Below the pieces are notes generated by a model. It saw only the letters and a list, made by a program, of their open reading frames with translations. It did no database searches and was not told where the DNA came from. From Christiangramia crocea (GTDB taxonomy: Bacteria; Bacteroidota; Bacteroidia; Flavobacteriales; Flavobacteriaceae): 64,000 nucleotides of DNA. Both the position numbers and the translations under genes were made by a program. The stretch is taken from contig NZ_JAJSON010000025.1 of assembly GCF_022410465.1 (NCBI RefSeq), positions 620,001 through 684,000 on the forward strand, in the 5' to 3' direction. Position 1 is the first letter of the stretch. Each line of letters starts with the position of its first letter. Shown one piece after another: positions 27,347 through 39,101 of the stretch.

Positions 27347-30300
27347 TCAATAATCAACGACAAGGATTTTTTTGGAGGTATTATTGATTCTGAGAATGTA
27401 AATACCCCGGGAAACAGATTTATTTAATTTCAATTTTGAAATATTCCCTGCCTCATTAAATTCAACTGAAGGAGTTTCTATAAATCTTCCGCTCAAATCA
27501 AACAAATAAAACTCATCTTTTAGTTTCGTATTTGATACAAATATTTCGGGAGAGGAAGACCTTACCGGATTTGGATAAACTATTAGTTTCTGAGGATATT
27601 CCTTGATGGGTTTTTCCAGACCTTCAAAATAAGTGATTGCATGATCATATGCTTTCTTTCCTATTTTTTCACCAATAATTCTTCCTAAAATATCATCTAT
27701 TGGAGGATGGATACCTCCCCATATTCTTGACAAACTACACTGATCGGAAGCATCCTGATAGGTTGCCCATTGCAAGGTAATATCAACCGACGGCCCTTCT
27801 TCAAAGACTAAGAATTCATTCTTTTTAGCTATAAACTCACCCATACCGCCAGGGAAATATTTGTCCCCTGTCAACAAAGTCAAAACTTCAGCTGCAGCTC
27901 TCGAAAAAGTTGAATGCCCCGAAACAAAACCTGCAAATGGCGGTGTTACAAAAGTAGGACGTTGATAGGGCCACCAGGTTTCCGCTAATATCCACCCAAC
28001 CCCTGCCACATCTACAGAAGGATCATCTATAAAATCGTGGCCTTTCCATGAATACAACTTTATTTTACCCAGGTTTTCATTATTTTCGCCTGCAAGTGGA
28101 TCCCCTTCTTCTATTATTTCAATTAATCCCTCTTTTAATGGGATTCCATTAGGGGCATAATTATCTCTGGATGGATTGGAGCTTTGTCCCTGAGCACACA
28201 TATAGCGTATAGCTGAAATAGGTCTTATATAATCATACCATCCTTTCAGGCTCCAGGATGCAACCGCAACATCGTGCATCGCTCCCCCAAGCAAAAAGTA
28301 AGCTTTGACATCCCATTCCAGATCATCCAGAACTGTCCCTTTCCCATTAATTTTTTTTTCTAATGCCTCATGATCGGTTACATAGTTGAGTATGGTGAAC
28401 CAGTGTCCCGGAGGGGTTTCGGAATCCGGTCCGTCTGCCCAGAACTCTGCTAAAACCCTTGTATAATCACCCCGGGGAACAATCTGCTCTTCATAGGCCT
28501 GCCCTGTATAAGGATTAATTCTGTGACCTTCTCCCAAGTCACCTCCGTCAATTTCATCATAGAAATTTTTATAATCTGAATACTGCTGAGGGAACTGATC
28601 AATTGAAATATTCCCCATAGATCCTGGAGAAATATCCCATAGAACTCCATCATACGGATCTAGATGAGATCCCCATTTGGAAACTAATGAAAACGCCCAT
28701 TTATAATCATCATCTTCAATTGATGGTGGAGCGTCAGTATCATAATAGACGTGATACTCGTTACCGGATCTGCTATGAATAGTTTTAGTGGCATCTTCAA
28801 GCGAAAAAGGTTCCACCCTCCCCCACTCTGCCCCCAGAAAGCCGGGAGTTTGTCCTTCTATAAGATGACCGCTCTGGTCAATAAAAGATTCGAAGGTTAA
28901 GGGTTGCCAGCGGTTAGGATTAATATCTTCTATGTTCTCCGGATGTGTAAGATCTAAAGGATCGTTCACAGGCTCATAAAAAATATTGTCATAATCATTT
29001 GTTTCGTTAGAGCCGTCCTGTAAACCATAGTTAATTATTTGCTTCGCTATATAGTTTCCCAGAGCTACAGGATCGCCGAACGTGTAATCTTCAGCCCTTA
29101 TTGAAGTATCATATCCTAGCTCATACATTGCCTCATCTAAAATTTCCTGGGCAACCAAAGAGTTAGGGGAATGCTTAAAACGATGAGACAGCAACCTGTA
29201 GGCTGCAAAGCTTATGGTTTGTTTTCTGGCTTCGGATTTATTCACAGTTGTTTCGAATCCTTTGAATTCACTTTCAAAACCATGAAGCATTTTCCCTGTT
29301 AAATAGGTAGAAGCTTTATCATTATAAATAGCCCAGGCGTCATACATGGCAATACTGGTATGAAACAAATTCCTGGCATGAACGGTTGGCCGGGCATAGT
29401 CCTGCCTGATTAACTCCAGGAGAACTTCGTTCCAGAACCGGGCAATGGAATGATTTATAATTTGAGACTCATCATCCTTTAAGCTAATACTTAATTCTAG
29501 CAATTCACTGGTGCAATTGGCATTAGATTCCTTAAGACTTATTTTGCCTGAGTTACCTGCGCCCCATTTTACTTTTAAATTGCCGGTTTCATCTGCTTCT
29601 ATTATCTCACCTCCTATTACCTCCCATTCTAAAGAAGAACCTTCTTTTAATTGATAGGAATATACCTCGATACTGTTCTTCACCGCTACATTACTCCCCA
29701 TGATATGGCCTGTTTCAAGATAAATGCAATTTCCTGTACTTTCTATAGCATAGGGATTGTAATTACAGGATTTGGGATCCATACAACCATAAATCTTTTT
29801 GCTTGGCTCTTCATTAATAATGGTAAAACCATTACCTTCAATAGCAGAAATAGTTTTATTTACCGGCAAGTCATCGTAGGTCTCAACCAACCCGGATGGC
29901 CACGTGATCTTCAGTTCCTGAATTTCAGCATCAGAACCTAAACCAAAATGTACAGGCCTCAAATTTTGTGAAAGAAATCCTTTTCCTGAATAATAGCGAT
30001 GCAAAGAACCATTTATCGTTTTAATAGAAACTTTAGTTCCTATCGCACCTCTGTTAGAATTCGTTCCTTCCAGTTTCACTTTAAACCAGTGAAGGTCACC
30101 TGAAGGGTTAGTAAAATCGGTTAGTGTATTTTCATAAAAATAGGAGGGTTCATCATTATTTGTTACAAAGATATCCAAGTCTCCATCTTTATCATAGTCA
30201 AATATTCCTGCTCCAACACTAATGGTAACTTCACCTAAATTAGTTTTTTGAGAACTATTAATAAACTGATTTTTGCCATTGGCAAATAAATTTTCAAAAT

Positions 30301-31372
30301 ATACATTAGTTCCCGAACCAGCATTTGGATAGTTAAAACCATTCACTACAAAAATATCTTCATCCCTGTCCAGGTCAAAATCAGAAAAGGTAACATCCCA
30401 TGCCCAGCCCGCATTATAAATTTTCAAATCCCTTCCACGATCTATATAAGTATTATCAGGAGTTTTGGTAAAAAGAGCATTATCTCCAATGGTGGTAATA
30501 TAGATATCAAAATTTCCATCATTATTGTAATCTCCAACGGCCATCCCCATATCACCTTTAGAATTGCCCAAACCATAGGAGGACGCACTTTCGGTAAAAC
30601 CGGTCCCACCATTATTTATATAAAGATCATTAGGACCAGGAACAAAATCATTGGCAACATATAGATCCATCCATCCATCCTTATTGAAGTCAAAAGGAAT
30701 GCTCTGGTAAGAATGTTTACTTTCTACTCCCTCAAAAATATGACTCACATTGGTGAAGGTTCCATTTCCATTATTCTTGTATAACCTATTGCCTTCACAA
30801 TCGCTATTCCAGTCTGAGATATAAATATCCAGAAAACCGTCCCTATTGTAGTCAAACCAGACGGCATCAGTATTGATACAATCATTATATTTTTTGAAAC
30901 CAGCTTCTTCGGTTACTTCTATAAAAGAACCATCGCCTTCATTATGAAAAAGCTGCATTTTGTTAGAGTGAGTCATGAAGAGGTCAGGAAAACCATCATT
31001 ATCATAATCCCCCCAAAAAGCGCCAAATTTGATTCCTGTTAATGCTACAGATACCTCCCCATTTTCAGTATACGGAAATAGATTAATTAAACCGGAACTA
31101 CTGGTAACATCGCTAAAAGTACCATCATTGTTGTTCCGAAATAATTTACTGTGGCTGGATGTTACTCTCTCGTTATCCTTATTCCGGGCAACGAGGAATA
31201 AATCAAGATCCCCATCCCTATCATAATCAGCTATAGCAACCGCATTATTTTTTTCAGCTGAAGTTAATCCGGCATAGGATTCTATCCTTTGGAAATCCTG
31301 AGCAGCAAGCTGAGAATAACAAAAGAATATTAAATAAAATGCACTAAGTATTACTTGCTTTTTTTTTCTCAC
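27347..31372 (-). CDS. FG-GAP/UnbV propeller fused to vanadium haloperoxidase-like domain, with type IX secretion tail
   Basis: A 1341-residue multidomain protein. After the signal peptide (CYSQLAAQDF), residues ~30-430 are FG-GAP/VCBS repeats with Ca-binding-like DYDRDGDLDLF, DYDNDGFPDLF and DFNKDGWMDLY motifs. An ASPIC/UnbV domain follows (~430-510: NRGAIGTKVSIKT, ITWPSGLVETYDDL), then a GCMDPKSCNYNPYA Cys motif and a PKD-like stretch. From ~630 to 1260 lies a vanadium-dependent haloperoxidase/PAP2-type domain whose whole signature is present: KGWYDYIRP (Kx6RP), FVSGHS (SGH) and SRIWGGIHPPID (SRx5Hx3D). A type A sorting domain (VYPNPVRSSSPEIF to the end) marks secretion by T9SS. Whether it oxidises halides or hydrolyses phosphate cannot be told. 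A terminator lies upstream, so it is probably its own transcription unit. Confidence 0.88.
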   Translation of the reverse strand: MRKKKQVILSAFYLIFFCYSQLAAQDFQRIESYAGLTSAEKNNAVAIADYDRDGDLDLFLVARNKDNERVTSSHSKLFRNNNDGTFSDVTSSSGLINLFPYTENGEVSVALTGIKFGAFWGDYDNDGFPDLFMTHSNKMQLFHNEGDGSFIEVTEEAGFKKYNDCINTDAVWFDYNRDGFLDIYISDWNSDCEGNRLYKNNGNGTFTNVSHIFEGVESKHSYQSIPFDFNKDGWMDLYVANDFVPGPNDLYINNGGTGFTESASSYGLGNSKGDMGMAVGDYNNDGNFDIYITTIGDNALFTKTPDNTYIDRGRDLKIYNAGWAWDVTFSDFDLDRDEDIFVVNGFNYPNAGSGTNVYFENLFANGKNQFINSSQKTNLGEVTISVGAGIFDYDKDGDLDIFVTNNDEPSYFYENTLTDFTNPSGDLHWFKVKLEGTNSNRGAIGTKVSIKTINGSLHRYYSGKGFLSQNLRPVHFGLGSDAEIQELKITWPSGLVETYDDLPVNKTISAIEGNGFTIINEEPSKKIYGCMDPKSCNYNPYAIESTGNCIYLETGHIMGSNVAVKNSIEVYSYQLKEGSSLEWEVIGGEIIEADETGNLKVKWGAGNSGKISLKESNANCTSELLELSISLKDDESQIINHSIARFWNEVLLELIRQDYARPTVHARNLFHTSIAMYDAWAIYNDKASTYLTGKMLHGFESEFKGFETTVNKSEARKQTISFAAYRLLSHRFKHSPNSLVAQEILDEAMYELGYDTSIRAEDYTFGDPVALGNYIAKQIINYGLQDGSNETNDYDNIFYEPVNDPLDLTHPENIEDINPNRWQPLTFESFIDQSGHLIEGQTPGFLGAEWGRVEPFSLEDATKTIHSRSGNEYHVYYDTDAPPSIEDDDYKWAFSLVSKWGSHLDPYDGVLWDISPGSMGNISIDQFPQQYSDYKNFYDEIDGGDLGEGHRINPYTGQAYEEQIVPRGDYTRVLAEFWADGPDSETPPGHWFTILNYVTDHEALEKKINGKGTVLDDLEWDVKAYFLLGGAMHDVAVASWSLKGWYDYIRPISAIRYMCAQGQSSNPSRDNYAPNGIPLKEGLIEIIEEGDPLAGENNENLGKIKLYSWKGHDFIDDPSVDVAGVGWILAETWWPYQRPTFVTPPFAGFVSGHSTFSRAAAEVLTLLTGDKYFPGGMGEFIAKKNEFLVFEEGPSVDITLQWATYQDASDQCSLSRIWGGIHPPIDDILGRIIGEKIGKKAYDHAITYFEGLEKPIKEYPQKLIVYPNPVRSSSPEIFVSNTKLKDEFYLFDLSGRFIETPSVEFNEAGNISKLKLNKSVSRGIYILRINNTSKKILVVDY

Positions 31373-31433
31373 AGCTTGATTAATAAGGAAGAGTATTTAT
31401 CTAATTCAATAAAAGAAAGCTTTAAGGATTAAA

Positions 31434-31468
31434 AACGGAAAGGAGTGGTATTTAACCTCCTTTCCGTT
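31434..31468 (-). terminator. Intrinsic terminator after second SusCD operon
   Basis: Inverted repeat AACGGAAAGGAG ... CTCCTTTCCGTT-type, closing on a short loop. On the minus strand it is followed by TTTTTAATCC. It lies 13 bp past the stop of the DUF4998 lipoprotein gene and separates that operon from the haloperoxidase-like gene. Confidence 0.75.
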
Positions 31469-31480
31469 CATTATCATTTT

Positions 31481-32689
31481 TTAATTTGCCACAATTATTT
31501 CCCAGGATAAAATATTTGAGAATTTGTTCCCAATCTGTGTGCTTATAAGCCCTACTGAAATTTCAGACATTTCTTCTTCTGTAGTAAATTCTACAGTATA
31601 TTCTGTAGTGCCCTCTAGGATGCGCTTATAGCCCATAATTTCAGAAGCTGTTGTAATGTTCTCTACGTCGGGCAATCCATCTCCTTTAGCAACAACAATA
31701 TATTTTCCACCTTCATCTTCAGGCAGATGATTATTGTTCATTAAAGAAACCTTTAGCTGGTAGGTAGCCGGTTCCTCCACCATTACAATTTGATATATTT
31801 TACCATTAATAATGTCAGGAGATCCCCAGCCAGATTCAAGATTGAAAATATTTCCATTCCATTCATCCCAGCCACCATAACCGTTATGGGTTTTGGCTGC
31901 ATCGTTCGTAATCCAAGGTTCTCCAAGAGTTCCCCATCTTCCATCGGCTTCAGCAGCAATAAAAGGAACCGCAGCATTTCCTAAAACCGGTGTAGGGATT
32001 GGTTTAATTTCCTCAAATTCGGTATAAAAGGTATCTATAGCTGTTTCGATAGGTAGAAAGGCCGTACGATAAGAAAAAGTAGATCCATTCTCATAATCGG
32101 ATATATCAAGAACAGAGTCGTCTATATCCAGGAATACCGAATTTTGAGTTCCAGCTGTTGTGGTATACTTCACTTCAGAACCTATCACTCCAGAACTGAG
32201 GTCCATAGCGGCAAAGTTAATGGCCAGATCATTCTCTATAAGGACACTTTTTTCAATAGGCCTGTTGAATAAGGTGGTAATATAACGATCTCCGTAAACT
32301 TCTGCGGTGACCGATTCCATAATGGATTTATGGCCCTGGTCATCAAAAGTTCTAAACTGAAAATTATATACATTTTCTTCCAGTCCATCAATTACTTTAG
32401 AAAACATATCGGTTCCCTGAGTTCTTTCAATAGGAACTACAACCGAATCTTTCTGCCCATTCCAGTAGACACGGACTTCGCTTACTTTTGGGTCGCCAAT
32501 AATAAGACCTTCAATTTTCACACGGTTTTTACCGGGAAAGACCTCTAATGAATCTACCTTAGCAAGGTATAAGGTTTCCCCATTTTCTACGTACTTTAAA
32601 TAGTCCTTATTATCTTCTGAACAGGACACGATTCCTATTATAGACAAGACAATTAAACAACTGGCTACTATATATTTAAAATTTCTCAT
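31481..32689 (-). CDS. DUF4998/DUF5013-type surface lipoprotein, candidate glycan-binding protein
   Basis: A 402-residue lipoprotein (IVLSIIGIVSCSEDNKD). Residues ~35-200 match DUF4998 (KVDSLEVFPGKNRVKIEGLI, SEVRVYWNGQKDSVVVPI, NFQFRTFDDQGHKSIMESV). The C-terminal ~150 residues resemble DUF5013, a jelly-roll-like domain (WGTLGEPWITND, GWGSPDIINGKIYQIV). Such proteins occur as the last member of SusC-SusD-lipoprotein sets and are thought to be surface glycan-binding proteins like SusE/F. The gene is 10 bp after the DUF4959 protein gene and just before a terminator. Ligand unknown. Confidence 0.8.
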   Translation of the reverse strand: MRNFKYIVASCLIVLSIIGIVSCSEDNKDYLKYVENGETLYLAKVDSLEVFPGKNRVKIEGLIIGDPKVSEVRVYWNGQKDSVVVPIERTQGTDMFSKVIDGLEENVYNFQFRTFDDQGHKSIMESVTAEVYGDRYITTLFNRPIEKSVLIENDLAINFAAMDLSSGVIGSEVKYTTTAGTQNSVFLDIDDSVLDISDYENGSTFSYRTAFLPIETAIDTFYTEFEEIKPIPTPVLGNAAVPFIAAEADGRWGTLGEPWITNDAAKTHNGYGGWDEWNGNIFNLESGWGSPDIINGKIYQIVMVEEPATYQLKVSLMNNNHLPEDEGGKYIVVAKGDGLPDVENITTASEIMGYKRILEGTTEYTVEFTTEEEMSEISVGLISTQIGNKFSNILSWEIIVAN

Positions 32690-32699
32690 AATCTTTAAT

Positions 32700-33920
32700 T
32701 TATTCTACAAAGTCTGGATTACCATAAACATGAATTTCCGAAATGGCCATAAATTCACCTCCGGCCCAGTTTTCCAGAGACTCGATTCTGAGGTATCTTA
32801 CGGCTGGCTTATTAATATCAATTTCATAATCAGCACCATCCCGGGCCGCTAAAAGGTCATCGTTATTTTCCTGGCCATATGGTAATCCGGAAGGTTTATT
32901 TACTTCATATTCCCCCATTAAGGTCCAGCTATCTAAATCGGGATTATTAGGATCATTAGATCCCCAGATCCTGAATTTCTTCATAGCTCCTAAATAGTAA
33001 TATAAACGCTGGCCCCCGATAGGTTCCGAAAATGCCCAGATGTGTAATCTACTTAATTTAGTTTTCTGACCAATATCAAAAGTTACCAAATGCGAATCCA
33101 GATTTAAATTTCTAGCGGTAAAATAAGATCCCCAATATTCGAGAAATTCATTGTCCCATAAATTAGTTACAGGGTAAGCATTATTTATAGTAACAGCATC
33201 ATTTGATAAACTAACGGCCCTATAGCTTGACTTAGGCATTAATTGCTCATAGAGTGGTGTGATCTCTGTGAATAAAGTATCGGTCACATTTAACCACCTG
33301 TCTCTCACAGCAATGGCAAATTCCTGTGTTATAGTATCAAAACCTCTTAAACTTTGAGAAATTTCACTGGTTTTTGTATAAATACTTGTTGGGAGAGGTT
33401 CCCAATCACCTACATCATTCCTTTGCATTATCAATACAGCAATTGATTCCTCTGTTGGATTTTGAGCACTAACTTTTAGCCCACCAAAGTCTGGATTTGC
33501 CTCCAAAGATTCAAAAACATCAAAAATTGGAGCCTTTTCTGGCGCTACGGTCACTGTAACTGGTTCAGATTCAACTTCACTTTTATTTACAGCTCTCACC
33601 GTCACTTCAATTTCAGATTCACCTTTAAAACCTTCCAGCACCATATTATTGCTATAGTATGAAGCCTTTTCTTCCATTTTAGTTCCATTCTCCAGGGTGT
33701 ACCGGGCAATAACATATAACAGATTCTCATCCTCTGGTAAATTATAGGTCAATCTTGCCTTACCGGGTAAATTTTCAACGGTTAGGTTCTCTACCGTCCC
33801 GGGAGGAGTGGTATCATTAGACAAAGGTGAAGGCCCATCATCTGTACTACAACTTATAATAGTTGTGGTGATTATTGGTAAAATAAAAACCAATAAAATT
33901 TGTTTAAGATTTATTTTCAT
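32700..33920 (-). CDS. DUF4959/DUF5126/DUF5000-type surface lipoprotein, candidate glycan-binding protein
   Basis: A 406-residue lipoprotein (TTTIISCSTDDGPSPLSND). It opens with a fibronectin-like DUF4959 domain (TPPGTVENLTVENLPGKARL), followed by a DUF5126-like domain (APIFDVFESLEANPDFGG) and a C-terminal discoidin-like DUF5000 domain (LWDNEFLEYWGSYFTARN, HIWAFSEPIGGQRLYYYLGA, VRYLRIESLENWAGGEFM). The C-terminal fold resembles F5/8 type C carbohydrate-binding modules. It lies 13 bp after the SusD gene. Together with the next gene it replaces SusE/F in this locus. Ligand unknown. Confidence 0.82.
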   Translation of the reverse strand: MKINLKQILLVFILPIITTTIISCSTDDGPSPLSNDTTPPGTVENLTVENLPGKARLTYNLPEDENLLYVIARYTLENGTKMEEKASYYSNNMVLEGFKGESEIEVTVRAVNKSEVESEPVTVTVAPEKAPIFDVFESLEANPDFGGLKVSAQNPTEESIAVLIMQRNDVGDWEPLPTSIYTKTSEISQSLRGFDTITQEFAIAVRDRWLNVTDTLFTEITPLYEQLMPKSSYRAVSLSNDAVTINNAYPVTNLWDNEFLEYWGSYFTARNLNLDSHLVTFDIGQKTKLSRLHIWAFSEPIGGQRLYYYLGAMKKFRIWGSNDPNNPDLDSWTLMGEYEVNKPSGLPYGQENNDDLLAARDGADYEIDINKPAVRYLRIESLENWAGGEFMAISEIHVYGNPDFVE

Positions 33921-33933
33921 AATGCTATATTTT

Positions 33934-35895
33934 TTACCAACCTGGGTTTTGAACCAGATTAGGGTTTTGAATTAAAGTCGTTTCATTAATTGGCCAGAAA
34001 TAATCCCTCGGGGCCACGAATCGCTGTTGGTACAAAGTATTAACCTGATAGTATGAACCTTCAGTGTCACCAAATACATTCCATCCTTTAACCGGTTCAT
34101 TATAATCACGAACGGCTTTTTTCCATCTCCTAACATCCCAGTAATTCTTACCTTCAAAAGCAAGCTCAATACTACGTTCCTTGTGTATGATCTCCCTCAT
34201 TCCTTCTTTTGTGGTGTATTTATTCGGGTTCACCGAATAGTTCTGCCAGGAAGTCGCTACACCTTCCAGCCCCGCACGCTCTCTTACGGCATCCACATAA
34301 TCCAAAACCTCACCTGTAGGTCCGGCCACTTCATTCAGAGCTTCGGCATACATAAGATATAAATCTGCCAGTCTTAATTCTGGCCAGGCATACTCCTTAT
34401 ATAAAGTACCACTAAAGTTCACCTCCCAGTTAACCAGTTTTTTGATATAATAACCTGTAACATTAAAATCAAAGGCATCTGAACTTCCAGCGTAATCTTT
34501 ATATTTAGCTTCAATATGATATTTGGTCTCTTCAGAACCACTATCATTTATATACCAGATGGCACCATCAAATCCAAGGTCTGCATAGAATCTTGGCTCT
34601 CGATCAAAATTAAGGATTGAGGTGCGATATCCTTCCTTGATATTAAGCCTGTCATCTGGACCGGCTTCCCTAATTCTGGTAATATCACTAAAGTTCAGGG
34701 TTCTGTCTTCCTCAATAGGTACGCCGTTTTCAGTATAAAAATTTGAAGCTGCTTCAATAGTAGCCCCAAAAACCTTCCTGGCCTGCCAGTGTGCTACTTC
34801 TCCTGTTAAAGGAGCCATAACCAGACGCTGTAATTCGTAGGTACGACTTCCAGCATTTGACCAGATTACTTCACGGTTCCACCGTTCTGTTACTGCCTGC
34901 CTTATATCAAGTTTAGTCTCCGTGGTTTCAGAAACATCAAAAGGAATGTCTTCTTTGTAGAAGATCGCATGCCCATTAGCTTCTGCTACCTCAATAGCCT
35001 CTTTAGCGGCATCGGCAGCTCTTTGCCACTTAGACTCATCGTAAGTGGTATCAAATAATGGAGTTCCATCATTATTTACCAGTCCAGACATATCAGAATT
35101 CCCATTAAATAAAGGGCTTGCTGCTGTTAGCAATAATTCAGCCTTTATACCAAGGGCTACAGGCCTGGTTACTCTTCCCAATTCATCCTGAAGGTTCATA
35201 ATTCTAGGAGGAAGATTTACTGCCGCTTCATCCAGTAACTTCACCAAATAATCCACAGTTTGATCTATAGGTTCCCGAGAAACCTGAAGTTCACTTTCCG
35301 GAGCATCGATAGCCACTACTTCACGCATAACCGGAATAGGACCGTACATACGCATCAAATAATAATGATAATAGGCTTTTAGAAATTTAGCCTCTGCTAT
35401 CCATCTTAAGCGTTCTGCCTGAGTAATGTCTGGAACCTGATTTTCATCTTCTAAGTTCTCAATAAAGATATTACAGTGCCTTATACCATCAAAAAGCGGG
35501 TACAAATCACCAGGGCCAGCGGCCTGATAGCGACCTTCCCAGGCATCCATGTAGGGATTTGAAACTCTTTGTAAGCCTCTTGCCACATCAAAAGCAAAAC
35601 TATTAATCGCCGCATCCTGTCCAGGAATCCAGGTTTCATCTCCAGCAAGCATCCCGATATTATAAACACCATCCCCATTCTTTGGAAGATAGGAATAACA
35701 GGTAAATAAATATTTTTCAGCCTCATTCCTAAGATTAAAAGCCTGATCTATGGTTTGGATATTATCTGGGACCACCTCCAGAAAGGATTCTTCACAAGAC
35801 CCCATACTTAGTGTTAAGACAGCCAGAAAGATCCAGCTAAAAGCTCGCTTAACACCAGTTAATTGTTTTTTCAAAATTTTATTTCTAATTCTCAT
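33934..35895 (-). CDS. SusD/RagB family lipoprotein (LacI-linked locus)
   Basis: A 653-residue SusD protein, longer than the arabinan-locus SusD. Signal peptide with lipobox VLTLSMGSCEESFLEVVPD; core RLRWIAEAKFLKAYYHYYLM and GRVTRPVALGIKAELLLTAA; end GKNYWDVRRWKKAVRDYNEP and PNLVQNPGW. It works with the SusC encoded 11 bp upstream. The extra length suggests additional surface loops for a larger or branched ligand. No glycoside hydrolase is in the operon to identify the ligand. Confidence 0.94.
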   Translation of the reverse strand: MRIRNKILKKQLTGVKRAFSWIFLAVLTLSMGSCEESFLEVVPDNIQTIDQAFNLRNEAEKYLFTCYSYLPKNGDGVYNIGMLAGDETWIPGQDAAINSFAFDVARGLQRVSNPYMDAWEGRYQAAGPGDLYPLFDGIRHCNIFIENLEDENQVPDITQAERLRWIAEAKFLKAYYHYYLMRMYGPIPVMREVVAIDAPESELQVSREPIDQTVDYLVKLLDEAAVNLPPRIMNLQDELGRVTRPVALGIKAELLLTAASPLFNGNSDMSGLVNNDGTPLFDTTYDESKWQRAADAAKEAIEVAEANGHAIFYKEDIPFDVSETTETKLDIRQAVTERWNREVIWSNAGSRTYELQRLVMAPLTGEVAHWQARKVFGATIEAASNFYTENGVPIEEDRTLNFSDITRIREAGPDDRLNIKEGYRTSILNFDREPRFYADLGFDGAIWYINDSGSEETKYHIEAKYKDYAGSSDAFDFNVTGYYIKKLVNWEVNFSGTLYKEYAWPELRLADLYLMYAEALNEVAGPTGEVLDYVDAVRERAGLEGVATSWQNYSVNPNKYTTKEGMREIIHKERSIELAFEGKNYWDVRRWKKAVRDYNEPVKGWNVFGDTEGSYYQVNTLYQQRFVAPRDYFWPINETTLIQNPNLVQNPGW

Positions 35896-35906
35896 AACTC
35901 TCTTGT

Positions 35907-38900
35907 TTAAAAATCAACTTTAACACCCAGGCTATATACAGATTGTATAGGATAGCCCAGACCATTACCCCCCATTTCAGGGTCCCACATATCAAAATTA
36001 CTCCAGACCGCAAGGTTATTACCAGAAAAATAAACTCTTAGATCCCTGATATCGAACTTGGAAAGGAATTTAGAAGGCAGGTTATATCCTGCTTCAACGG
36101 TTTTTAACCTTAGAAAAGAACCATCACGCATCCACCAGGATGAAGTCTGGTTATTATTTTCAATAAAAGTATCACTCAACCGTGGCCAGAATGAATATAG
36201 ATCCCGATTACTTTCTGACCAATGGTCTTCTGCAATTGCATTTAATAAACCGTTTTGAGCTGAACCAGTTATTACAAACGGCGATATATTCCACGGATTA
36301 ATAAAGAAAGAAGTTCTTCCTACACCCTGGAAAAATAAGCTCAGGTCAAAATCCTTAAATCCTATGGTACCTCCAAAACCATATACAATCTCTGGTATAG
36401 TTGGATAACCCAAAGGAACCATATCGTTTTCAGATATTACACCATCACCATTTACATCATGATATTTGATATCCCCTCCCGTATAATCTCCAAATTGTGT
36501 AGGTGCATTCAAGGTTTCTTCATGGTCTACAAATAAGCGCTCTGCGATGTAACCATAAGCCTGGTTAGTATTGGTCCCGATCCTGGAACGGTATGCCAGT
36601 TCCTCCGGATAATTCAACTCATCATACTGCAGGATTTCATTGGTTGCATAGGTGAAATTCCCTCTTAGCTGAGTATACCAGTCCTGATTGATCTGTTTGT
36701 TATAGGTTACCGTAGCATCAAGTCCACGGCTTTCGGCCTCCGCAAAATTAGTTGAAGGAGTAGCAGTAAGACCTAAAGTAGATCCTATATTTGATCTGGC
36801 CTGCAGGATATTATCCCTTCTTTGCCTGAACACATCTACAGTAAAATTCAAAGCATTGTATAATTCCAGGTCCAGTCCCAGATTAATCTGGGTAGATTCT
36901 TCCCACCCAATATTTTCGTTGGCGTAACGCTCAATAAACACCCCATTTCTATAATAACCAAAGGTTTCACCGAAAGCGACGCCATAATTTGGATCGTTCA
37001 GGTTGACATTAGAAAGATAGAAGAAACGGTCTGCCACATTACCTATCTGGTCATTACCAACTTTACCATAGGTACCGCGAAGTTTCAATTGTGAAACCAC
37101 ATCTTTTAGAGGCTCCCAGAACTTCTCATTCGCGATCGAATATCCAACACCTACCGATGGGAAAAATCCATATCTGTTCCCCAGGGCAAATCTTTCAGAA
37201 CCGTTGTACCCAAAATTGAATTCAAATAAATACCTTGTATCATAACCATAAGAGACACTACCGGAAATCCCATGGTTTCTATTAGGTAGAGAACTCTGAA
37301 CATTTCCGGCATTTCCGGTTTCAAAACTTTCCAAATAGTTGATCACCCTTGCCGATACCGCATGCACCTCATCAAAGGTTCTGTTATAACTAATTTCTGT
37401 TTCCAGGTGTGCGCGAGAATCCAAAAGCTTCGCACCTTCATTATAATTAAGGAATTCAGTTCCAGGTGTACCTATAGACCCCTGTCCTCCAGGATTAATT
37501 ACATCTAATACTAACTCACCTGTAACGGGGCTGATATTAGCATCATAATAGAACGGGTTATACTGCCTGGCAACCTCGTAATACGAATACCTTCTTAGAT
37601 ACCCCATAGCACGAGCCTTAAGCCCTTCAGTAATAAAATCAAAATCCTGTTTCAAGGCAATCTGGGCCTGTAGGGTAGACGCCTTATTTGTTTGATATCC
37701 ACGTACCATTTCTGCATATGGATTGATCAGAATATTGTCGCTGCCAAAACCTGTTGGAGCTCCTCCGAATAGCGGATGCTGAATATAAGGCAGATTCTCA
37801 GCCGGGTATACCGCCGGGAACTTAACAGGGTTAGACCATAAAGTTAAATTAAATATACGTTGCCCACCGTTTATTAAATTCCCATTCGCGTCTCTTCCGC
37901 CAACCGGACCATTATAGTCATCAAACTGTCCATATAATCTTACAATACCTGTTGTGGTAGGGGTAAGATCTATATCCAGGTTGGTCCTAACCGAATAATT
38001 TCTAAGTTTAATATTATTATTGAAATTGTTTATCCCTTCTACATTCAGTAAACCATTATCAATATTATAAGTTCCTGCAATATAGTACCTGGCCTTTTCG
38101 CCTCCACCAGAAGCACTTATATTATAGCCCTGATTTACGGTATAATCTTTTATTAGCTCATCTATCCAGTTGTTACTTGGATATAAATAAGGATCATCTC
38201 CTATAGATGTTCTATAGATTTTATTTTGATTATAAGGTAACTGTGCTTCAGGATTACGTGTAAGTGCCGCTTCATTCGCTAGTTGCATATAGGTAATATT
38301 ATCGGCAAAATTAAAATCCTGGGTATTGGTAGACACTCTTGTTTCACTTCTAAACTGGAATCGCGTTTTGCCTTCCTGTCCCATTTTAGTCTGGATCAAA
38401 ACCACACCATTTGCTCCGCGTGCCCCGTAAAGAGCAGCTGCAGCTGCATCCTTTAAGACCGAAAAGCTTTCAATATCATCCGGCTGAAGGCGGGCCATAT
38501 CCCTGGTAGTAGATTCGATACCATCAATTAGAATCAATGGATTTTGTTTACCAGATCCAAAAGTCCCCAAACCTCTAATAAAGAAATCGGAGTCGTCTGC
38601 TCCGGGCTCACCGCTACGTTGAAAAGCGACCATCCCGGCCACCCTACCAGCCATCATAGTGGTAAGGTTATTAGTAGGACCTTTTAATTCTGAAGGGTTC
38701 ACAGCAGTAACAGAGCTAACTAAGTTTGCCTTTTTCTGCACTCCCCCAAAACCCACAACAACGGTTTCGTCTAAGGCCTCAACATCAGGATTAAGAGTCA
38801 CATCAATTTGAGACCTGCCATCTACCTGAATTTCCTGAGAAGAAAAACCAAGATAGGTAAACTCCAAAACAGCATCAGACGAGCTAACACTTATTTGATA

Positions 38901-39101
38901 ATTACCATCAAAGTCGGTCGCAACTCCATTGGAAGTTCCTTTTTCAATCACATTCACTCCGGGAATAGGCATATTATTATCAGAAGCCGTAACCTTACCG
39001 CTCACAGTAACTTGTTGTGCCATTAAAATTCCGGAGGATAAAATTAGAAGCCCAAACAAATAAATGTTGAGGCTGTTTTTAGAAATTTTAAAAATTCGCA
39101 T
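35907..39101 (-). CDS. SusC/RagA family TonB-dependent transporter (LacI-linked locus)
   Basis: A 1064-residue outer-membrane transporter. Signal peptide (LSSGILMAQQ), CarboxypepD_reg-like domain (TVSGKVTASDNNMPIPGVNV), plug (DETVVVGFGGVQKKANLVSS, SFSVLKDAAAAALYGARGAN) and barrel ending YPIQSVYSLGVKVDF. It starts an operon SusC-SusD-DUF4959-DUF4998. A perfect LacI-type palindrome lies 38 bp before the start codon, and a LacI gene is divergent, so local LacI control is likely. Ligand unknown. Confidence 0.95.
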   Translation of the reverse strand: MRIFKISKNSLNIYLFGLLILSSGILMAQQVTVSGKVTASDNNMPIPGVNVIEKGTSNGVATDFDGNYQISVSSSDAVLEFTYLGFSSQEIQVDGRSQIDVTLNPDVEALDETVVVGFGGVQKKANLVSSVTAVNPSELKGPTNNLTTMMAGRVAGMVAFQRSGEPGADDSDFFIRGLGTFGSGKQNPLILIDGIESTTRDMARLQPDDIESFSVLKDAAAAALYGARGANGVVLIQTKMGQEGKTRFQFRSETRVSTNTQDFNFADNITYMQLANEAALTRNPEAQLPYNQNKIYRTSIGDDPYLYPSNNWIDELIKDYTVNQGYNISASGGGEKARYYIAGTYNIDNGLLNVEGINNFNNNIKLRNYSVRTNLDIDLTPTTTGIVRLYGQFDDYNGPVGGRDANGNLINGGQRIFNLTLWSNPVKFPAVYPAENLPYIQHPLFGGAPTGFGSDNILINPYAEMVRGYQTNKASTLQAQIALKQDFDFITEGLKARAMGYLRRYSYYEVARQYNPFYYDANISPVTGELVLDVINPGGQGSIGTPGTEFLNYNEGAKLLDSRAHLETEISYNRTFDEVHAVSARVINYLESFETGNAGNVQSSLPNRNHGISGSVSYGYDTRYLFEFNFGYNGSERFALGNRYGFFPSVGVGYSIANEKFWEPLKDVVSQLKLRGTYGKVGNDQIGNVADRFFYLSNVNLNDPNYGVAFGETFGYYRNGVFIERYANENIGWEESTQINLGLDLELYNALNFTVDVFRQRRDNILQARSNIGSTLGLTATPSTNFAEAESRGLDATVTYNKQINQDWYTQLRGNFTYATNEILQYDELNYPEELAYRSRIGTNTNQAYGYIAERLFVDHEETLNAPTQFGDYTGGDIKYHDVNGDGVISENDMVPLGYPTIPEIVYGFGGTIGFKDFDLSLFFQGVGRTSFFINPWNISPFVITGSAQNGLLNAIAEDHWSESNRDLYSFWPRLSDTFIENNNQTSSWWMRDGSFLRLKTVEAGYNLPSKFLSKFDIRDLRVYFSGNNLAVWSNFDMWDPEMGGNGLGYPIQSVYSLGVKVDF

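What the first reader, a model, noticed from the sequence alone, without database searches (positions are those of the whole stretch)
27347..31372. FG-GAP/UnbV propeller fused to a vanadium haloperoxidase-like domain with T9SS tail
One secreted 1341-residue protein joins calcium-binding propeller repeats, an ASPIC/UnbV domain, a Cys motif, a PAP2/haloperoxidase domain with the complete Kx6RP, SGH and SRx5Hx3D signature, and a type A sorting tail. A secreted halide oxidase or phosphatase on the cell surface beside glycan loci is unusual; it could attack, defend against or modify algal or plant material.
Basis: partly seen in the sequence, partly recalled or inferred. Interest (0 to 1): 0.65.

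Follow-up and report, generated by a model that had tools for sequence, protein, structure and literature searches.

The report
Surface haloperoxidase fused to UnbV propeller
A bacterium related to the Flavobacteriaceae encodes a large secreted protein that joins a propeller-shaped module to what looks like an intact vanadium haloperoxidase; the fusion is real but common in relatives, and it points to a partnership between these two kinds of protein in nutrient-uptake gene clusters.

Summary
One 1341-residue ORF holds an FG-GAP propeller with UnbV (fold of CRTAC1), a Cys motif, a whole bacterial vanadium-haloperoxidase (VHPO) domain and a type A T9SS tail. The VHPO model matches NapH1, XhnO11 and the Zobellia iodoperoxidase along its length (Z 27-30), against about 12 over the core for acid phosphatases. 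Signature residues, plus Trp at K-3 and Phe at SGH-5, are invariant in 110 of 110 aligned rows.

It is not rare: 66 of 79 fetched homologous loci hold the same fusion, and 76 fused rows form one side of one branch of a tree. The window is an L-arabinose/arabinan region; the protein's own clade mostly lies near SusCD or glycosidase genes (8 of 9 rows with full flanks), unfused relatives do not (1 of 24).

The surprise is nearby in the genome: two close relatives of the Zobellia iodoperoxidase end SusC-SusD-UnbV gene runs, and 18 of 20 sampled iodoperoxidase loci have UnbV genes beside them. The fusion repeats in one chain a pairing that exists as neighbouring genes. My literature searches found no description. 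Activity, halide and role are untested, and a terminator-like hairpin separates the gene from the SusCD genes.

The parts
27347..31372 (-). whole fusion gene, 1341 aa, GTG start
31298..31372 (-). probable signal peptide, about residues 1-25
   Evidence: read by eye from the translation; no predictor run
30125..31297 (-). FG-GAP beta-propeller, about residues 26-416
   Evidence: Pfam FG-GAP_3; model of residues 22-629 matches CRTAC1, Z 40.6
29849..30046 (-). UnbV/ASPIC domain, residues 443-508
29720..29788 (-). Cys motif, residues 529-551 (C530, C536, C549)
   Evidence: sequence; the three Cys invariant in alignment A2
29504..29710 (-). weak PKD-like stretch, residues 555-623
   Evidence: E 0.038, under the Pfam cut-off
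27620..29464 (-). vanadium haloperoxidase domain, about residues 637-1251
28220..28246 (-). Kx6RP motif, K1043 to P1051 (W1040 three residues before K)
27914..27937 (-). F1146 to H1153, with SGH
   Evidence: the loop just before SGH has low model confidence
27692..27730 (-). SRx5Hx3D motif, S1215 to D1227
27362..27580 (-). T9SS type A sorting tail, residues 1265-1337
   Evidence: TIGR04183 34.8 bits, cut-off 23
31415..31485 (-). terminator-like hairpin with U-run between the upstream gene and the fusion gene
   Evidence: -21.6 kcal/mol, z -4.89, 0 of 200 shuffles as low
31481..32689 (-). upstream neighbour: DUF4998/DUF5013 protein
32700..33920 (-). upstream neighbour: DUF4959/DUF5126/DUF5000 protein
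33934..35895 (-). upstream neighbour: SusD
35907..39101 (-). upstream neighbour: SusC-type TonB-dependent receptor

Best explanation
The gene encodes a cell-surface vanadium-dependent haloperoxidase. It is exported by Sec and the type IX system (inferred from signal peptide and sorting tail). The C-terminal half binds vanadate through H1222, with K1043, R1050, S1151, G1152 and R1216 around the oxyanion and H1153 as acid/base, and uses H2O2 to oxidise iodide or bromide (inferred by homology; roles of the residues recalled from the family). The CRTAC1-like propeller/UnbV half is a docking module that holds the enzyme at the glycan-uptake machinery or on a glycan (inferred). The likely purpose is to use up H2O2 and make short-lived halogen oxidants where pentose glycans are bound and taken up. 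Shown here: anatomy, predicted fold, residue conservation, one change between fused and unfused, repeated pairing of UnbV with VHPO genes. Not shown: activity, halide, binding partner, transcription, role.
For: Fold: Z 29.7 to NapH1 over 436 residues, 29.4 XhnO11, 27.4 Zobellia iodoperoxidase, about 22 fungal chloroperoxidase; acid phosphatases 11-12 over about 200 residues (model pLDDT 88.9, pTM 0.91). All signature residues, W1040 and F1146 invariant in 110 of 110 rows. The five solved bacterial homologues aligned all have W at K-3; the Zobellia enzyme also has PPF before SGH. PorV and 12 sorting tails over cut-off in the genome. Two iodoperoxidase relatives (3.5e-130 and 8.6e-192 to 4cit) end SusC-SusD-UnbV runs in the same genome, and UnbV genes lie beside 18 of 20 sampled iodoperoxidase genes, against 3 of 31 for unfused relatives of this VHPO. 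Arabinan/arabinose surroundings; SusCD or GH markers within 7 kb in 8 of 9 fully flanked rows of its clade.
Against: No activity data. NapH3, which shares the fold and the W, catalyses a rearrangement, not halogenation (title), and fungal apo-chloroperoxidase can dephosphorylate (title of 3bb0). The loop with F1146 has mean pLDDT about 60. A terminator-like hairpin separates the gene from SusCD. Only 16 of 54 fully flanked fused rows outside its clade have SusCD/GH markers, and in Winogradskyella and kin the gene lies among housekeeping genes. In the same genus the one other genome searched has no close copy (G266). Sequence does not tell the halide (PMC13198595, passages).
Confidence: 0.6

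Rival explanations
1. A VHPO-fold enzyme with other, substrate-specific chemistry (as NapH3, which rearranges an alpha-hydroxyketone), acting on one small molecule or sugar bound by the propeller half.
For: NapH3 and XhnO11 are among the nearest folds (Z 28.8 and 29.4). The unfused relatives often sit beside kynurenine-type catabolic genes, which hints at small-molecule chemistry (Pfam checked in L147; others by eye).
Against: The vanadate-site residues, H1153 included, are invariant in 110 of 110 rows; in the alignment XhnO11 has Ser at the His place of SGH, whereas this protein keeps His.
Confidence: 0.2
2. A surface phosphatase of the PAP2 superfamily: the same oxyanion pocket holds phosphate and the protein frees phosphate from glycans or other esters.
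For: The three motifs are those shared by acid phosphatases and VHPOs (PMC4859513, passages); fungal apo-chloroperoxidase dephosphorylates (titles).
Against: The extra N-terminal helical bundle is that of VHPOs; acid phosphatases align over about 200 residues only, Z about 12. Two short PAP2 proteins of this genome lack the W and F (N/N and S/Y), while this protein and a 505-residue VHPO-like paralogue have them (4 of the 8 PAP2 loci fitted the strict pattern).
Confidence: 0.1
3. A binding or structural surface protein in which the VHPO half no longer acts as an enzyme.
For: Large UnbV proteins without any enzyme domain occur beside SusCD in the same genome.
Against: Invariant active-site residues in 110 of 110 rows.
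Confidence: 0.04

Closest known systems
Bacterial vanadium chloroperoxidase NapH1 (3w35/3w36), with XhnO11 (9l8x) and NapH3 (8cxl)
   Same: Full-length fold of the VHPO domain (Z 28.8-29.7), DUF6851/VCPO_2nd regions, W at K-3
   Different: Sequence identity about 21-25% in the structural alignment; those are stand-alone; this one is fused to propeller/UnbV and has a T9SS tail
Zobellia galactanivorans vanadium iodoperoxidase (4cit/4usz)
   Same: Fold (Z 27.4), W at K-3, PPF before SGH; its closest relatives in this genome are encoded next to UnbV genes
   Different: Shorter, stand-alone, only 21-22% identical in the structural alignment
CRTAC1 (9etn) and bacterial FG-GAP/UnbV (CRTAC1-family) proteins
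   Same: N-terminal half: propeller plus UnbV, Z 40.6 over 455 residues
   Different: No enzyme domain in CRTAC1 itself; here followed by a Cys motif and a VHPO
Class A acid phosphatases / PAP2 superfamily
   Same: Core bundle and the three motifs, Z 11-12
   Different: About 200 aligned residues only; PAP2 model below its cut-off

Membership tests
Vanadium-dependent haloperoxidase | VHPO fold with N-terminal and C-terminal helical bundles | tested here: met
   Z 22-30 to five kinds of solved VHPO over 385-438 residues
Vanadium-dependent haloperoxidase | K, R, S-G-H, R, H vanadate-site residues in order | tested here: met
   invariant in 110 of 110 rows
Vanadium-dependent haloperoxidase | these residues together in one pocket | not testable with these tools
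Vanadium-dependent haloperoxidase | vanadate-dependent halide oxidation by H2O2 | not testable with these tools
   needs protein
Acid phosphatase / PAP2 | single core bundle with PAP2 profile over cut-off | tested here: not met
   17.9 bits against 27.2; two-bundle VHPO match is much stronger
Acid phosphatase / PAP2 | phosphomonoesterase activity | not testable with these tools
   needs protein
CRTAC1/UnbV proteins | FG-GAP propeller followed by UnbV_ASPIC | tested here: met
T9SS type A cargo | C-terminal type A sorting domain | tested here: met
   TIGR04183 34.8 bits, cut-off 23
T9SS type A cargo | T9SS in the same genome | tested here: met
   PorV, 2 matches over cut-off; 12 tails over cut-off; other T9SS parts not searched
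Polysaccharide utilisation locus member | steady neighbourhood and co-transcription with SusCD | tested here: inconclusive
   8 of 9 in the window's clade, 16 of 54 other fused rows with full 7 kb flanks; hairpin before the gene

The most novel reading that the evidence does not exclude
UnbV propeller plus vanadium haloperoxidase is a general two-part surface module of Bacteroidota SusCD uptake systems. It occurs as neighbouring genes (SusC-SusD-UnbV-iodoperoxidase) and, from one fusion event, as a single chain. Halogen and peroxide chemistry would then be a built-in part of pentose-glycan uptake and not a separate defence.
Probability: 0.3. Interest if true: 0.75.

Novelty: new variant of a known kind. 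Interest (0 to 1): 0.5.

Why it matters
Iodoperoxidases of marine Flavobacteria have a solved structure, but the passages I saw give no settled physiological role. Their pairing with UnbV and SusCD genes, and the fusion of such a pair in one chain, suggest where these enzymes work and with which partners. If true it would tie iodine and bromine chemistry to glycan feeding by common bacteria and make that testable by gene removal.

Tried and rejected
Phosphatase reading: kept as a rival but weakened. 'Last gene of the SusCD operon': first assumed from the 108-base gap; the hairpin there argues against plain co-transcription, so it is not claimed. Of seven other gaps folded, four (L129, L093, L053, L131) show a like hairpin, and L128 and the two gaps of L116 do not (only energies, no shuffles, for these seven). 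'Unusual protein': rejected. Halide from sequence: dropped. Direction of change (fusion or fission): not claimed, since the root rests on one very long outgroup branch and the tree was a quick one with SH-aLRT only. Low-Z rows to effectors and the many propellers were treated as common arrangements.

Literature: no held paper has 'haloperoxidase' with 'UnbV' or 'vanadium-dependent haloperoxidase' with 'Bacteroidetes' and 'FG-GAP'. Searches listed 2, 12, 3 and 1 papers; of these I saw passages of PMC9296495 and PMC5064120, the rest only as listings. One search counted 396 papers with three of four terms and listed ten, all with 0 occurrences of the haloperoxidase term. Most subscription journals are not held; Fournier 2014 is not held and was seen only as a citation.

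Limits of the samples: one search kept the best 80 of 290 loci, which favours close relatives. L142-L161 are 20 stretches that I chose for frames of about 720-770 aa, L128-L136 nine that I chose as copies in four genomes with strong matches (L136 repeats L049). So proportions of fused and unfused are not frequencies in nature. Rows under 450 residues and identical rows were dropped before the tree. Markers came from the window's own proteins, which favours contexts like the window's. The 20 iodoperoxidase stretches are 20 of the 61 matches outside the own genome, taken at roughly even steps; L175 and L179 are short.
Full report
Observation. The ORF at 27347-31372 on the minus strand encodes 1341 residues from a GTG start. 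Pfam and NCBIfam find seven FG-GAP_3 stretches, UnbV_ASPIC at 443-508, DUF6851 and VCPO_2nd in the C-terminal half, and the type A sorting tail at 1265-1337; the PAP2 model alone stays under its cut-off. By sequence the best solved relative of the first half is CRTAC1, and of the second half several vanadium haloperoxidases. The signature is complete: K1043-x6-R1050-P1051, S1151-G1152-H1153, S1215-R1216-x5-H1222-x3-D1226.

Structure. With an alignment of 79 rows the VHPO domain was predicted at pLDDT 88.9, pTM 0.91; the loop just before SGH has a block mean of about 60. The closest solved chains are NapH1 (Z 29.7, 436 residues, 2.6 A), XhnO11 (29.4), NapH3 (28.8), the Zobellia iodoperoxidase (27.4) and the fungal chloroperoxidase (about 22). 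Class A acid phosphatases come at 11-12 over about 200 residues, algal and cyanobacterial bromoperoxidases at 9-11. The N-terminal part (45 rows, pLDDT 92.0) matches CRTAC1 at Z 40.6 over 455 residues; the next propellers are at 30.6 and less.

Active site. On 110 rows (76 fused, 31 unfused, 3 with other extensions) the vanadate-site residues are invariant, and so are W1040 at K-3 and F1146 at SGH-5. The K-3 place bears on halogen specificity in the A. marina enzyme (PMC11871015, passages), and the Phe is the suspected halide acceptor in fungal enzymes (PMC10427571, passages); that F1146 is its equivalent is my reading of the motif spacing. The five solved bacterial homologues all have W at K-3, NapH3 among them, so W does not by itself mean halogenation. 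In the genome itself, of eight PAP2 loci four fit a strict signature pattern: two short ones have N/N and S/Y at these places, a 505-residue paralogue and this protein have W/F. This favours a haloperoxidase over a phosphatase but proves no activity.

Distribution. 122 of 299 family genomes match the domain at 1e-10, 84 of them (own genome included, my count) at 1e-100 or better. In the class 30 of 295 match the profile at 1e-60. That the family is Flavobacteriaceae is inferred: one of its members (G115) has a contig of the same length, 1,402,262 bases, as one of Aestuariibaculum suncheonense. Of 79 loci fetched from named records 66 hold the fusion. In a quick tree of 110 rows plus an outgroup the 76 fused rows form one side of a branch (SH-aLRT 98; one change; 0 of 500 shuffles as low). 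Fused rows come mainly from Flavobacteriaceae, with Reichenbachiellaceae, Prolixibacteraceae, Roseivirgaceae and others. Some unfused rows bear KSB1, Nitrospirota and Pseudomonadales names; these are MAG contigs and may be mis-binned.

Neighbourhood. The window is an L-arabinose/arabinan region: AraA, an aldolase-II protein, an FGGY kinase, several GH43, GH127, an AraR-like regulator, SusCD pairs, and a GH30/GH2/GH43 locus with a hybrid sensor. The fusion gene follows SusC-SusD-DUF5000-DUF4998. The same order precedes it in L129 and L093; in Wenyingzhuangia (L053) it stands after two GH43 genes and before GH127. SusCD or GH markers lie within 7 kb in 11 of 14 other rows of the window's clade (8 of 9 with full flanks), 17 of 61 other fused rows (16 of 54), 1 of 31 unfused rows (1 of 24) and 0 of 3 others. 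Against a plain operon: a hairpin with a U-run, -21.6 kcal/mol, z -4.89, lies before the gene, with like hairpins at four of seven other gaps folded. In Winogradskyella, Psychroserpens and others the fused gene sits in a repeated housekeeping neighbourhood (16-18 loci share the flanking clusters; Pfam of L082). So the glycan context belongs to its branch, not to the whole family.

The pairing. Two other VHPOs of this genome, 441 and 460 residues, are close relatives of the solved Zobellia iodoperoxidase (3.5e-130 and 8.6e-192). They end runs SusC-SusD-UnbV x2 and SusC-SusD-UnbV x3 (Pfam of four of the five UnbV proteins). 60 of 149 family genomes have such an iodoperoxidase at 1e-60. In 20 stretches sampled from them an UnbV gene lies within six genes upstream or two downstream in 18, directly upstream on the same strand in 15; L174 and L178 have none; SusC or SusD shows in that same short span in 10. 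The same UnbV test gives 3 of 31 for unfused relatives of the window's VHPO, 1 of 75 for fused ones and 0 of 3 for others. One unfused relative, L116, stands as SusC-SusD-UnbV-VHPO with 34 bases between the last two genes. A fusion of two proteins that elsewhere are encoded side by side is a classic sign of a functional link; note that the fused VHPO and the iodoperoxidases are different subfamilies. Four of the sampled runs (L165-L168) carry ORFs of 494 and 441 aa; in L165 these are an FGGY kinase and a xylose-isomerase-like protein, and a 550-aa ORF in L167 is an SSF symporter.

How it may work. Signal peptide and sorting tail, in a genome with PorV and 12 tails over cut-off, imply export to the surface. 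The propeller/UnbV half would position the enzyme; the VHPO half would use H2O2 and halide. Zobellia raises one iodoperoxidase on a brown alga, which its authors discuss with algal halogen defence (PMC9296495, passages). I take peroxide consumption and local halogen oxidants at the feeding surface as the best reading: 0.6 for the enzyme class and placement, clearly less for the role.

Verdict. The UnbV-VHPO-SusCD pairing, which my searches did not find described, is what deserves follow-up.

Noticed in passing
L137:8334-19901, L138:5108-19901 (own genome), L162-L181: Iodoperoxidase genes (Zobellia type) end SusC-SusD-UnbV runs in this genome; UnbV genes lie beside 18 of 20 sampled relatives.
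   Followed up: partly
L147:2239-8878; by eye also L125, L145, L149-L152, L155: Unfused relatives of the VHPO (about 730 aa) stand beside kynureninase, an FAD monooxygenase, an aldehyde dehydrogenase and an amidohydrolase, a kynurenine-type cluster (Pfam in L147; others by N-terminal letters).
   Followed up: partly
L165-L168: Some SusC-SusD-UnbV-iodoperoxidase runs include xylose-isomerase-like, FGGY kinase and SSF symporter genes (checked in L165 and L167), a second link to pentose use.
   Followed up: partly
L049, L051, L052, L054, L056: A protein of about 670 aa lies just upstream of the fusion gene in five loci of the window's clade; DUF2264 in L049.
   Followed up: partly
L054:8066-16142, L131:6939-14993: Two fusion genes stand in tandem; those of L131 have equal match scores.
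   Followed up: no
L111:5849-13096, L113:552-4295: VHPO domains with other long C-terminal extensions and no propeller found by my markers.
   Followed up: no
window 31415-31485 (-): Strong terminator-like hairpin before the fusion gene, with like hairpins at the same place in L129, L093, L053 and L131.
   Followed up: partly
L138:4181-5101, L172:16843-17751, L165:2079-2972: A membrane-anchored protein of about 300 aa without a firm Pfam family often follows the iodoperoxidase gene.
   Followed up: no
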